A DNA stretch of 64,000 bases, from NCBI GenBank assembly GCA_900659855.1, contig CAACVI010000034.1:248001-312000 (forward strand). Reading direction: 5' to 3'. Of this stretch, positions 8,654 through 12,963 are shown in pieces. Position 1 is the stretch's first letter. Every line of letters begins with the position of its first letter. Origin of the DNA: Candidatus Desulfarcum epimagneticum (lineage in GTDB: Bacteria; Desulfobacterota; Desulfobacteria; Desulfobacterales; CR-1). The position numbers were made by a program, and so were the translations under genes. The notes under the pieces were generated by a model. The model saw nothing but the letters and a program-made list of their open reading frames with translations, was not told the DNA's origin and made no database searches.

Positions 8654-8800
8654 ATAAACTCGTAAAAAAGCTTGGGATGGCTAAGTCAAAAATTCGATAT
8701 ACAAGGCGTAGTGGTTATTTTTAATCAAGGCAATACATGTAGTATGCCTTGATTAAAAATAAGCGCTGCAACGCCGTAGATCGGATTTTTTACGACGCCA
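8654..8800. mobile_element. MITE-like non-autonomous palindromic element (147 bp)
   Basis: A long inverted repeat pairs TTATTTTTAATCAAGGCA (8715-8732) with its complement (8745-8762). Weaker pairing extends outward through AAATTCGATATACAAGGCG. Both ends carry TCGTAAAAAA-type termini. It is flanked by an identical 10-mer, TCAATAGTTG (8644-8653 and 8801-8810), a plausible target-site duplication. No coding capacity. It occupies most of the gap between gltD and the next gene, and both converging transcripts would run into it. Confidence 0.7.
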
Positions 8801-8855
8801 TCAATAGTTGTGACAGCCTCAATCCGTGACGGCCTCCTAAAAAAACTGCCATGCC

Positions 8856-8887: not shown

Positions 8888-10129
8888 TCAACGGTTTGTG
8901 GCGGAGAAAACAGTCAGCAGGAGTTCCGCGTTGTCAATCAATTGATAGACCGGTTTTTTACCGGACAAACGCTCGCTCTCATCCATGATAATGGGAACGC
9001 CCTCCCCCCGCTTTTCCATATAAAAACCACGTCCCACATCGCCAATCGATTCCGTCACCGGCGTTTCGGCCAGCAGACTCGTAATCAGCTCATTCCGGGT
9101 GGCCTGGCGAAGCGCTATGTTGTCCAAAGTCACTGTGTTCGGGAGGGGGCCCGGCGAATAAATTTCCAGGCGGTCATCAAACATAAAAAACCGGATCTTT
9201 GAACCGAAAATTGAATAATCACGGTGCGCCACAGCGTTGACCACAGCCTCAAAGACAGCCCGTTCGCTGAACTGCGTTTTTTCAATCCGATGGGGTTTCT
9301 TTACGGCCATGACCGTTTGATTTCTTTTTAAAAACGCCATGGTCTGATGAATCTGCCGATCCAGCGGGCCGCGAATTTTTTGAGCGTCCATTTGATAATT
9401 GGAGTCCCGCTTCTTTCCCCGGTAGCGAACGGCTTCCACATAAGCGCTTGACAAGAAGCGCTCCGGGCGCTCGCAGCAAAACAGGACGCCGGCCACCGAA
9501 GCGCGAACCACTCCGCTTTCTTCTTTTGACAGCAGGTTTCTTTTCAGCAGCAAAGTCTCGGCCGGCTCATTTGAACGGGCCGAATATTTGCGCCACAAGC
9601 CCTCGGACAAATCGTCAAGGCTCGATTGGGGAACCGACTGTTCTTCGAATCTGATCAACCTGGCCTGGCTGCGCTGTTGAAACAAACGGGCAAGATAGTC
9701 CGGCGGCATTTTTCGTTTCGAACTCCCCTGGCGATGAAAATATCCCCCCGGACTTTCATGAACAAACAGACTGCGCGGGATATCGACTTTAAGCGCCGGC
9801 CGGGAAACGCCTGTTTTATCGGGAAGCCGCATACGAAAAGATAAAAACAAAACCGGTGGCTTAATGCTCTCGTTGCAGATTTCATACACATAACGTTCGA
9901 CGGCTTCAAGACGCTCCAAAGGAATGCCCTCAATGTCCCGGGTTTTATCGTCCACACCCAGAACAAGCGCGCCGTCATGGGTGTTGGCCATCGCCGCGAT
10001 TTCATCGGCCAAATCTTCGCGCTTCGGCTCCGCGACCCGCTGTCCCTTAAAACGAACGGATTTCAGCTCAAGAGAAGTGTCTTCCCCGAGACGTATTTTT
10101 TCCAGCAGTTCTTCCGGTGTGTCAAACAT
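8888..10129 (-). CDS. AlbA_2 (Schlafen-like/AAA_4) and HATPase_c_4 domain protein
   Basis: The 413-residue protein has an N-terminal AlbA_2 nucleic-acid-binding domain (about residues 12-125; E-L-K in LELKSVRF, then DEIAAMANTHDGALVLGV). A GHKL-type ATP-binding domain follows (about 285-375; EAVVNAVAHRDY and DRLEIYSPGPLP). Such proteins are often annotated as transcriptional regulators or RecG-like ATPases and recur in defence islands. ATG 10129 is chosen because GGAGGA precedes it by 5 nt and it overlaps the stop of the upstream ATPase gene by 8 nt (ATGTTTGA). The 5' extension to 10249 lies inside that gene. The coupling suggests that the two act together. Its biochemical role is unknown. Confidence 0.85.
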   Translation of the reverse strand: MFDTPEELLEKIRLGEDTSLELKSVRFKGQRVAEPKREDLADEIAAMANTHDGALVLGVDDKTRDIEGIPLERLEAVERYVYEICNESIKPPVLFLSFRMRLPDKTGVSRPALKVDIPRSLFVHESPGGYFHRQGSSKRKMPPDYLARLFQQRSQARLIRFEEQSVPQSSLDDLSEGLWRKYSARSNEPAETLLLKRNLLSKEESGVVRASVAGVLFCCERPERFLSSAYVEAVRYRGKKRDSNYQMDAQKIRGPLDRQIHQTMAFLKRNQTVMAVKKPHRIEKTQFSERAVFEAVVNAVAHRDYSIFGSKIRFFMFDDRLEIYSPGPLPNTVTLDNIALRQATRNELITSLLAETPVTESIGDVGRGFYMEKRGEGVPIIMDESERLSGKKPVYQLIDNAELLLTVFSATNR

Positions 10130-12875
10130 GGCGGTCCTCCAGGGCAATGCGGCGATAACGATCTTCAAAGGCTTTGCGGCCGCCTTCCATAACCGCGCAA
10201 ACAGCGTGGCGAACGATTTTCTCCTGAAGACCGCCCTGAGACTCCACACGCGTTTCCCCGCCTTTCACGGAAAGGGCGACCACCAGCTCCGCGTCGCCGT
10301 TGACCACAATGTTTGCGTTGTGCGTGACCACGATCACCTGTCTATGGCGTTTAACCTCCCGCAACCGGTTTACGATCAAATCATAAATAAGGCGGTTGTC
10401 CAGGTCATCTTCCGGCTGGTCCAGGATCAGGGGCTCTTCGCCGTAGGAAAGCAGAAAGGCCAAAAGCGCGGCGGTCTTCTGGCCCGGCGAGCCTTGCTGA
10501 ATGGACCGAAAGCCCCGCCCATCCCCCGTCGCGCTATACCGGACGTGAAGTGAATCCTCCGGAAACCACAACTCAAGGCGGTCCATGGCCTCTGGGGGAA
10601 GCTTTCTGATATGGGCCGCGAAACGCTGATCTTTGAACAACGAATTTGAATCGGATCGCCCCGATATGATGGCTCTGACCCTGTCCTTGATGTCCGCGAG
10701 ATTCTTTTCGATATCCTCTGGACCATCCACGTTTGCATGAAGTTTTCCAAGCAGGGAATCAACATCCTTTTCAAATCCGCCGCCTTCTCTTTGAATCAAA
10801 CGGCGAAATTCCTCTTTGGCGGTTTCTCCGGAACCGTATGGGGCGACCTCTATCCGGATATGCCGGTTTTCACCCAAAACATGATCCAGAAATTTTCGTC
10901 GGGATTCGGTCCGTTCCCGGCGAATCTTCAGCAATCGCCTAAGAGATTCATCGGCCTGCGTCTTCAGCTCTGAAACTTGTTTTCTTCGGCCCTCCAGTTC
11001 CCTCAGCCGCCGCTCCACAGCCTGCCGGCGCTGAACCAGCTCCCCATAAGCGTCGGGGGCGCCCGCTCCTTCGCCGGCCAGTTTTTCCCGCAAGTCTTCG
11101 TACGCCTTTTCGGAGGCGTTGACGCCGCGCATCCAGGAGGATTCAACTTTTTTTGTCAACCACCTTGAGATCGCTTCATTCGCTTGAGATGACAGAGCCT
11201 CTAGGGCCTTGCGAATTTCTTCTAAACGGCTGAGCGCCTCGGCGGCCAGACACAGCAGTCCGGAATCTTCCGCCGAATCAGGATCAAAGTCGGTTTTATC
11301 CAGATGGTCCGGAACAATTTCAGACGCGATTTTTCGCAGCTGATCCCCGGCGGCGTTCCAGCTTTCCTCCCATGCTTCGACTGTTCGTTTCTGGCGGCTT
11401 CTTTTTTGAAACAGTTGAAGGACATCGGCATGTCCCGCCTCTTCAAAGACGGCCAGTTTTCGTTTCACGTCATCCAGTTCCCCCAAGAATCGCGGCTCAT
11501 CGGCAAGACCGGTCTCCATCTCCCTGGCCCTGGCGCGAAGCGACAGGAATCTGGCTTGCTCCGCGTCCCATTTTTCGGACCAGGAGCGAAGATTCACCTC
11601 CGGCGCGTCGTCCACAACCCCCAGCAATGCAAGCGGCGTTTTGGCAAGCTGGAATATCTGCTTCTGGCTGTAAATCCGAACCGGAAACCGCTGACGAATG
11701 TCGCCTTCCGCCGGGCGCCACTCTCCGCCGGATTCCTGTTCAATCGGTTCAAGATCTCCGGAATCATTCCACTGGACACGAAACCGGTCGCCGTTCTTTC
11801 GGTAAATCACCCTGATTGAGGACTCTTCTGTAAGCAGCCCGGTGTCTTCCCGATTCGAATAGACCCTGCCGTATTTTTCAAAGTCCGATTCCAGCTCAGG
11901 CGGCAGTTCATCCCCGCGTCGAAGGGCAATGCGAAGAAACTCCACCCCGGTTGACTTGCCTGTCCCTCTCCCGCCGATGACGGCGTTCAGCCAGGGATTG
12001 AGCCCGAGGGAAAATTTTTCGGATCGTCCTAAAAAACGAGCCCTGGAAATTTCCATGGATTCCAACGCCAGCGGGGCGTGATCATTGGGGTCCCCGCTTT
12101 CCTGATCGGAGCGCCGCGCGGAAAGAGATCCGTCCAGAAGAGCCAGACGCAGTCCCTCGATATTGGGGACGCCCATCTTGACCCAGGTGAAATGACTGCC
12201 CGGGTATCGCTGTCCCGGACTTCCGGAAGGATGATGGGAATCCGATCCCAGCAATTCGGTCCAGCGCGGGTTTTTTTCATTGTATAATTGTGGTTTTTGT
12301 AAGGCGGGATTCACCACCTCCATGGCGAAGATCGGGTCACAGTCCAGCGCCTGAGACAATGTCTGCCCTTTCCACGTAAACAAACCATTTCTCTTATCCG
12401 CGTGGGCGGGAATCGCGATGCCCCCCCTCTCAACGATTGCGCCGACGACCTCTGCGAACGATTTATGTGTGACGCCGTCGCTTTCTCCAGGAGCCCCTTT
12501 ATACCCCACAGCCCCGCGAAGGGCCTCAAGGTCCGAGCCGCTCTTTGAAGGATCGAATATGGCCAGGAGATGGATTCCGCCATGGACGGAAATCTCCATT
12601 CCCGGGAACAGATAAAGTTGACGGAACCCATCGGTTTTTTTCCGTTTCAGGCGCTCCAACGCGGCTTTAAGCGGATCAATCCAGGCGGCGGTGTTATGAT
12701 CGGTAATCGCCACGCAATCAATGCCCGCGCGCATGTGATCCAGCAGCCATTCTTCTTTCTCGCGTTTTTTCAGACTCGCCTGATTCGGGCCTTTTCCGTA
12801 ATCGCTGGAAGCGGGCGTGTGGGCATGAAAATCAAATTTCCACCACCTGGAGCCATTCCATTTCCATTCCGTCAT
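10122..12875 (-). CDS. TrlF/Ppl-type PHP-domain SMC-like ATPase
   Basis: The 917-residue protein has an N-terminal PHP phosphoesterase/nuclease domain with a full metal site: H17/H19 (DFHAHT), D59-H60, E94, H98/H102, H158 and D212-S-H214. An ABC/SMC-type ATPase follows: Walker A GGRGTGKST (301-309), a long helical, probably coiled-coil middle (about 420-720), signature SPGQKTAALLAFLL and Walker B LILDQPEDDLD (816-826). A GAGGA ribosome-binding site lies 7 nt before the ATG. The same PHP plus ATPase architecture is known from the single-gene antiphage system Ppl. Here it is coupled to an AlbA_2 ATPase, which makes defence likely but unproven. It lies 88 nt downstream of moaA on the same strand. 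Confidence 0.88.
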   Translation of the reverse strand: MTEWKWNGSRWWKFDFHAHTPASSDYGKGPNQASLKKREKEEWLLDHMRAGIDCVAITDHNTAAWIDPLKAALERLKRKKTDGFRQLYLFPGMEISVHGGIHLLAIFDPSKSGSDLEALRGAVGYKGAPGESDGVTHKSFAEVVGAIVERGGIAIPAHADKRNGLFTWKGQTLSQALDCDPIFAMEVVNPALQKPQLYNEKNPRWTELLGSDSHHPSGSPGQRYPGSHFTWVKMGVPNIEGLRLALLDGSLSARRSDQESGDPNDHAPLALESMEISRARFLGRSEKFSLGLNPWLNAVIGGRGTGKSTGVEFLRIALRRGDELPPELESDFEKYGRVYSNREDTGLLTEESSIRVIYRKNGDRFRVQWNDSGDLEPIEQESGGEWRPAEGDIRQRFPVRIYSQKQIFQLAKTPLALLGVVDDAPEVNLRSWSEKWDAEQARFLSLRARAREMETGLADEPRFLGELDDVKRKLAVFEEAGHADVLQLFQKRSRQKRTVEAWEESWNAAGDQLRKIASEIVPDHLDKTDFDPDSAEDSGLLCLAAEALSRLEEIRKALEALSSQANEAISRWLTKKVESSWMRGVNASEKAYEDLREKLAGEGAGAPDAYGELVQRRQAVERRLRELEGRRKQVSELKTQADESLRRLLKIRRERTESRRKFLDHVLGENRHIRIEVAPYGSGETAKEEFRRLIQREGGGFEKDVDSLLGKLHANVDGPEDIEKNLADIKDRVRAIISGRSDSNSLFKDQRFAAHIRKLPPEAMDRLELWFPEDSLHVRYSATGDGRGFRSIQQGSPGQKTAALLAFLLSYGEEPLILDQPEDDLDNRLIYDLIVNRLREVKRHRQVIVVTHNANIVVNGDAELVVALSVKGGETRVESQGGLQEKIVRHAVCAVMEGGRKAFEDRYRRIALEDRHV

Positions 12876-12963
12876 GTGTTTTTCCTCAATGTCGCCAGCG
12901 TGTTCATGTCGTCAAATTTACGTCATCCGGGACGCAAAGTCAACAAAGGGAAAAAGACGACTT

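What the first reader, a model, noticed from the sequence alone, without database searches (positions are those of the whole stretch)
8888..12875. Coupled PHP-SMC ATPase (TrlF/Ppl-like) and AlbA_2/HATPase pair: candidate two-gene defence system
Both proteins look catalytically complete: a PHP metal site plus ABC-type ATPase in one, AlbA_2 plus GHKL ATP site in the other. The second gene's ATG and ribosome-binding site lie inside the end of the first. Known Ppl defence is a single gene, so a dedicated AlbA_2 partner would be a new variant. A MITE sits at the downstream edge and a housekeeping operon upstream, as is common for inserted defence modules.
Basis: partly seen in the sequence, partly recalled or inferred. 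Interest (0 to 1): 0.78.

Follow-up and report, generated by a model that had tools for sequence, protein, structure and literature searches.

The report
TrlF–TrlG two-gene defence module
Two overlapping genes encode a DNA-handling nuclease/ATPase and a partner resembling the human antiviral RNase Schlafen; the pair recurs across many phyla, often lodged inside known anti-phage operons, so it is most likely a transferable two-part defence unit whose only studied relative was described as a bacterial 'temperature restriction' locus.

Summary
The two genes are real, complete and translationally coupled (8-nt overlap). Gene 1 (917 aa) belongs to NCBI's TrlF family: an Endonuclease-Q-like PHP domain followed by an SMC/Rad50 head with coiled coil; it scores below the curated Ppl cut-off. 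Gene 2 (413 aa) has TrlG's architecture: a Schlafen-type AlbA_2 domain plus a GHKL-like domain; its E16/E21/D61 align with SLFN13's catalytic triad. The pair is not new in itself: trlF–trlG was published in 2020 as the Photorhabdus 'temperature restriction locus', where TrlG loss lifts growth arrest. Added here: (i) 61 of the 80 nearest TrlF loci, and 15 of 27 loci in an even phylum sample, carry the partner next door, and the two genes co-diverge; (ii) the pair is repeatedly nested in or beside BREX, Hma and restriction-modification operons, and moves between phyla; (iii) the window lineage keeps both putative active sites complete, unlike the TRL lineage; (iv) phage copies and many plasmid copies of TrlF are single-gene. 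Best reading: a DNA-sensing SMC–nuclease that licenses a Schlafen-like RNase to arrest infected cells. A defence role is likely; the biochemical steps are inferred. New variant of a known kind.

The parts
10122..12875 (-). trlF-like gene, 917 aa: PHP domain plus SMC/Rad50-type ATPase
   Evidence: NF045780 TrlF 626 bits (cut-off 350); PADLOC Ppl 458 bits; AlphaFold model pLDDT 89
12093..12848 (-). PHP domain of TrlF (residues 10-261), metal-ligand set H17 H19 H60 E94 H102 H158 D212 H214
   Evidence: Fold match to Endonuclease Q 7k30/5zb8, Z 20.6, 225 residues, rmsd 3.2; ligand set complete in 57 of 76 paired TrlFs
10182..12074 (-). SMC/Rad50 head with coiled coil (residues 268-898)
   Evidence: Fold matches to Smc, RecN, Rad50 and JetC heads, Z 17-20; G304, K307, S308, S796, G798, D819, E822 and D826 invariant in 82 rows
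8888..10129 (-). trlG-like gene, 413 aa: Schlafen AlbA_2 domain plus HATPase_c_4
   Evidence: Pfam SLFN_AlbA_2 and HATPase_c_4; model pLDDT 90; whole-length match to 3lmm, Z 22.9
9707..10084 (-). AlbA_2/Schlafen domain with E16, E21, K23, D61
   Evidence: Aligns with the SLFN13 N-domain and SAMD9 tRNase domain, Z about 10; SLFN13 triad E205/E210/D248 from PMC5862951
8936..9205 (-). HATPase_c_4 (GHKL-like) domain; N-box E294/N298 conserved, G1-box Asp absent
10122..10129 (-). 8-nt overlap of trlF end and trlG start
   Evidence: gap or overlap of -11 to +15 nt in 60 of 61 related loci
10136..10140 (-). GGAGG ribosome-binding site of trlG, inside trlF
12915..12943 (-). promoter-like TTGACT-17-TAAATT in the moaA-trlF gap (suggestive only: the number of hits in the region equals chance)

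Best explanation
A horizontally spread two-gene defence module of the TrlF-TrlG kind. TrlF, a fusion of an EndoQ-like PHP phosphodiesterase/nuclease with an SMC/Rad50-type ATPase and coiled coil, would survey DNA and recognise foreign or damaged ends or structures. On recognition, an ATP-dependent rearrangement would activate TrlG, which is made in a coupled ratio from the overlapping gene. TrlG would act as a Schlafen-like RNase (tRNA or rRNA), controlled through its GHKL-like domain, stopping translation and growth so that the phage or plasmid cannot spread. Shown here: gene structure, predicted folds, conserved active-site residues, conserved pairing and co-divergence, nesting in defence operons, signs of horizontal transfer. 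From the literature: the homologous TrlG is what stops growth in Photorhabdus, because TrlG mutations lift the arrest. Inferred: the DNA trigger, the TrlF-TrlG contact, RNA as substrate, and protection against phage.
For: Partner next door in 61 of 80 nearest loci and 15 of 27 loci of an even phylum sample; junction -11 to +15 nt in 60 of 61; distance matrices correlated, r = 0.93 over 76 pairs and 0.77 within the window type, at most 0.26 in 2000 permutations. Defence operons: PglX-[FG]-PglZ-BrxL (L030, L034; with a second Schlafen gene in L050, L066), HmaB-[FG]-HmaC (L075, L077; homologous genes in L063), type III-like methylase-[FG]-helicase (L013, L038, L046), beside a type I restriction subunit (L054, L060), inside type I R-M operons on IncC plasmids (L091, L095). 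Phyla mixed in both trees; GC3 0.58-0.60 against 0.75-0.79 in neighbours; absent beside moaA in 29 relatives. TrlG's AlbA_2 matches Schlafen and SAMD9 tRNase folds, Z 10-11, with the SLFN13 triad conserved. Photorhabdus TrlG mutants regain growth, none in trlF (PMC7554251). BREX-linked Schlafen-histidine-kinase proteins were independently proposed as backup suicidal RNase effectors (PMC12839542).
Against: I found no phage assay for any TrlFG pair. The published TrlG phenotype is temperature-dependent growth arrest. TRL-type TrlGs have Q in place of E21 (10 of 76 pairs), so growth arrest there may not need the full RNase triad. The AlbA_2 consensus residues are shared widely in the Pfam family, including proteins annotated as regulators. 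The window copy has no defence neighbours. TrlF also occurs alone (20 of 21 viral copies lack TrlG), so it can act without this partner. The complex was not modelled.
Confidence: 0.55

Rival explanations
1. TrlF is the effector: a DNA-cutting SMC-nuclease like Ppl, or a Wadjet/Mre11-Rad50-like machine; TrlG is a nucleic-acid-binding regulator or safety partner, not an RNase.
For: Single-gene TrlF/Ppl forms exist on phages and plasmids; PHP fold closest to Endonuclease Q, head closest to Smc/Rad50/JetC; PHP ligands complete in the window type.
Against: In Photorhabdus the arrest is lifted by TrlG, not TrlF, mutations (PMC7554251); one paired lineage has lost the PHP HxH motif (QxN: L095, L106, L127, L129, L130) but keeps TrlG E-E-K-D.
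Confidence: 0.2
2. TrlFG is a guard of modification-based defence: it sits in BREX, Hma and R-M operons and fires when a phage inhibits the host methylase or restriction enzyme, as PrrC and PARIS do (those two from general knowledge).
For: Repeated nesting beside the methylase genes of BREX, Hma, type I and type III-like operons; PARIS and Schlafen proteins occur as backup effectors in BREX (PMC12839542).
Against: Many copies, including the window's, stand alone beside housekeeping genes, so a resident R-M partner is not required.
Confidence: 0.15
3. A stress or temperature growth-control operon, as described for Photorhabdus, without a defence role.
For: Published growth restriction at 36 deg C and induction by temperature up-shift (PMC7554251).
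Against: Patchy distribution (27 of 395 genomes of the phylum over the cut-off), mixing of phyla in the trees, plasmid carriage, nesting in defence operons.
Confidence: 0.08

Closest known systems
Photorhabdus temperature restriction locus trlR-trlF-trlG (PMC7554251)
   Same: Gene order trlF-trlG, TrlG with AlbA_2 then HATPase_c_4; NCBI's TrlF family model, which bears the same name, recognises the window protein
   Different: No trlR in the window (88-nt gap to moaA). TRL-type relatives on plasmids are only about 20% (TrlF) and 28% (TrlG) identical, with Q for E21 in TrlG and K for H214 in TrlF
Ppl, single-gene anti-phage protein (PADLOC PDLC02208, NCBIfam NF042955)
   Same: PHP plus ATPase over the whole length, 458 and 548 bits
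   Different: Below NCBI's Ppl cut-off of 1000; here with a Schlafen-type partner gene
Schlafen-histidine kinase-wHTH proteins of BREX loci (PMC12839542)
   Same: Schlafen/AlbA_2 fused to a minimal GHKL domain; found in BREX operons, as TrlFG also is in L030, L034, L050, L066
   Different: TrlG ends after the GHKL domain (413 aa; orphan relatives L094-L099 are 461-484 aa) and is coupled to TrlF
Vertebrate Schlafens and SAMD9 (SLFN13, SLFN11, SLFN14, SAMD9 tRNase domain)
   Same: AlbA_2 core fold, Z 10-11, and E-E-D triad
   Different: TrlG has one AlbA_2 lobe and a GHKL domain instead of the second lobe or helicase
Endonuclease Q; Rad50/SMC and Wadjet JetC heads
   Same: PHP nuclease fold and SMC/Rad50 head of TrlF
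   Different: Both are fused in one 917-aa chain

Membership tests
TrlF family (NCBIfam NF045780) | Score over the curated cut-off of 350 bits, whole length | tested here: met
   626 bits, residues 7-910 on positions 1-943 of 944
Ppl (NCBIfam NF042955) | Score over the curated cut-off of 1000 bits | tested here: not met
   547.9 bits
TRL operon trlR-trlF-trlG | trlF followed by trlG (AlbA_2 + HATPase_c_4) | tested here: met
TRL operon trlR-trlF-trlG | trlR regulator gene upstream | tested here: not met
   moaA ends 88 nt upstream of trlF, leaving no room for a gene
TRL operon trlR-trlF-trlG | Temperature-dependent growth arrest through TrlG | not testable with these tools
   Needs expression experiments
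Schlafen RNases | AlbA_2 core fold with E-E-D triad | tested here: met
   Z 10-11 to SLFN and SAMD9; E16 62/62, E21 57/62, D61 59/62
Schlafen RNases | tRNA or rRNA cleavage | not testable with these tools
   Biochemistry needed
GHKL ATP-binding domain | N-box E and N | tested here: met
   E294 and N298 in all 76 pairs
GHKL ATP-binding domain | G1-box Asp (DxGxG) | tested here: not met
   S/V/T/N at position 325 in all 76
SMC/Rad50-type ABC ATPase | Walker A, signature, Walker B with catalytic E | tested here: met
   GGRGTGKS, SPGQ and DQPEDDLD; G304, K307, S308, S796, G798, D819, E822 and D826 invariant in 82 rows

The most novel reading that the evidence does not exclude
TrlFG is a bacterial checkpoint for damaged or foreign DNA in which an EndoQ-type nuclease fused to an SMC ATPase licenses a Schlafen tRNase: a prokaryotic counterpart of SLFN11, which couples DNA damage to tRNA cleavage. 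The 'temperature restriction' of Photorhabdus would be a sister module firing at raised temperature.
Probability: 0.3. Interest if true: 0.75.

Novelty: new variant of a known kind. Interest (0 to 1): 0.52.

Why it matters
It links three things treated apart: Ppl-type single-gene defence, the unexplained Photorhabdus temperature restriction locus, and Schlafen-GHKL proteins in defence operons. It gives direct predictions about what TrlG cuts and what TrlF senses. It shows a cassette found inside BREX, Hma and R-M operons, which suggests that annotation tools should treat TrlF-TrlG as a two-gene system apart from Ppl.

Tried and rejected
MITE as a sign of insertion: rejected, about 40 copies genome-wide. 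Empty-site test beside moaA: 29 relatives lack the pair there, but they are of other families and gltD was not found next to moaA in them, so it shows patchiness only. Single origin of all TrlF-linked TrlGs against solo relatives: rejected (AU p 8e-36; long branches are a caveat). Type I R-M as the general partner: markers in only 4 of 80 genome loci. Phage carriage of the pair: one of 21 viral TrlF loci has TrlG. TrlF by sequence against solved structures: no match. Mapping the Photorhabdus mutations onto TrlG beyond Ser16: the Photorhabdus sequence was not at hand and the numbering of the Yersinia relative drifts. Scoring further TrlFs against NCBIfam failed on coordinates and was not repeated. 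A prior description of the pair as a defence system was not found in the held papers, which hold no bioRxiv collection and few subscription journals. [quoted passage not shown]
Full report
WHAT IS THERE. The window lies in a 3.26-Mb genome of 52 contigs. On the minus strand, 10122-12875 encodes a 917-aa protein and 8888-10129 a 413-aa protein; the second start codon overlaps the end of the first gene by 8 nt and has GGAGG 6 nt upstream. Upstream are moaA, cobA-hemD and hemC; downstream and convergent are gltD and gltB. The pair has lower GC3 (0.60, 0.58) than its neighbours (0.75-0.79), and none of 29 relatives of the same order has TrlF beside moaA, so it looks acquired. The hairpin repeat at 8655-8806 is one of about 40 genomic copies and says nothing about the pair.

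THE FIRST PROTEIN. It scores 626 bits with NCBI's TrlF model (cut-off 350) and 548 with the Ppl model (cut-off 1000), so it is TrlF, not strict Ppl. A model of high confidence (pLDDT 89) matches Endonuclease Q over residues 10-261 (Z 20.6, rmsd 3.2, 225 residues) and SMC/Rad50/RecN heads over 268-898 (Z 17-20). PHP metal ligands, Walker A, signature and Walker B are conserved.

THE SECOND PROTEIN. AlbA_2 (Schlafen) plus HATPase_c_4, model pLDDT 90. Residues 1-127 match the Schlafen core and the SAMD9 tRNase domain (Z 10-11), 226-413 match GHKL kinases (Z 9-10), and the whole chain matches the uncharacterised DIP2311 (3lmm, Z 22.9). E16, E21 and D61 align with rat SLFN13 E205, E210 and D248, the residues needed for tRNA cleavage. 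The GHKL N-box is invariant, but the G1 Asp is absent in all 76 TrlGs, so ATP binding is not assured.

CONSERVATION OF THE PAIR. Of the 80 nearest TrlF loci in GTDB genomes, 61 have TrlG directly downstream, 60 of them with a junction of -11 to +15 nt. In an even sample of 395 genomes of the phylum, 27 carry TrlF over the cut-off; of 29 loci fetched, 27 have room downstream and 15 of these have an AlbA_2/HATPase partner there. TrlF and TrlG distances correlate (r 0.93 over 76 pairs; 0.77 within the window type; permutations at most 0.26). Nearly identical pairs occur in Comamonadaceae, Novispirillum and Thauera (L054, L058, L060), and both trees mix phyla. TrlF also occurs alone: in a clade on Klebsiella and Citrobacter plasmids and in 20 of 21 viral-contig loci (one of the 20 has too little sequence downstream to tell).

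DEFENCE CONTEXT. In at least ten genome loci the pair lies inside a known kind of defence operon, mostly with tight junctions: BREX (PglX-[FG]-PglZ-BrxL: L030, L034; with a second Schlafen gene in L050, L066), Hma (HmaB-[FG]-HmaC: L075, L077, homologous genes in L063) and type III-like methylase-[FG]-helicase (L013, L038, L046); in L054 and L060 it follows a type I restriction subunit. On IncC plasmids it lies inside type I R-M operons (hsdR-trlF-trlG-hsdS-AAA-hsdM in pNDM102337; hsdM-hsdS-trlF-trlG-hsdR in pCFR-0b27). The genome loci were chosen by similarity to the window protein, and no formal background rate was computed. Labels in L013, L030, L038, L050, L063 and L066 rest on clustering with an annotated representative. 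Many other copies, the window's among them, have no defence gene next to them.

LINEAGES. At least three kinds of TrlF-linked TrlG exist. Over 76 pairs, the PHP ligand set is complete in 57 and the TrlG E-E-K-D set in 61; the window type has both. The TRL type (Yersinia, Pseudomonas and IncC plasmids, several relatives in the phylum) has Q at E21 of TrlG and K or E at the last PHP histidine. A third type (pCFR-0b27 and others) has lost the PHP HxH but keeps the TrlG triad. The TrlF-linked TrlGs are not one clade against solo Schlafen-HATPase proteins, so recruitment of the partner, or loss of TrlF, happened more than once.

LITERATURE. The Photorhabdus locus trlR-trlF-trlG stops growth at 36 deg C; 20 of 29 sequenced tolerant isolates carried trlG lesions and none was seen in trlF (PMC7554251). 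One substitution, Ser16Asn, lies two residues from the catalytic Glu equivalent if numbering follows the Yersinia relative. Schlafen-histidine kinase proteins in BREX loci have been proposed as RNase effectors, citing a 2025 preprint on bacterial Schlafens (PMC12839542). No held paper that I found describes TrlF-TrlG as a defence system.

VERDICT. The best mechanism is DNA sensing by TrlF and RNA cleavage by TrlG; both are inferences from fold, motifs, context and the Photorhabdus genetics.

Noticed in passing
L113 (own genome contig C2) 8391-9632: An AlbA_2/HATPase_c_4 protein of 413 aa sits inside a type I-B cas operon, after cas3b, cas8b and cas7b and before cas1.
   Followed up: partly
L050 10094-11338; L066 4201-5439: Two BREX operons carry a second Schlafen-HATPase gene, of the pCFR-0b27 type, in addition to TrlF-TrlG.
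   Followed up: partly
L115 (own genome contig C6) 9470-11446: A 658-aa Ppl-like PHP protein (PADLOC Ppl 75 bits) beside ShlB-type secretion and peptidoglycan-binding genes.
   Followed up: no
window 8655-8806: A hairpin repeat of about 150 bp with about 40 copies at 85-100% identity in the genome.
   Followed up: partly
L054, L058, L060 10129-11838: Nearly identical TrlF-TrlG pairs in Comamonadaceae, Novispirillum and Thauera are followed by the same 570-aa gene, which matches the PADLOC candidate model HEC-05.
   Followed up: no
viral contigs L175-L195: TrlF on viral contigs is almost always the single-gene form; only L190 has TrlG next to it.
   Followed up: partly
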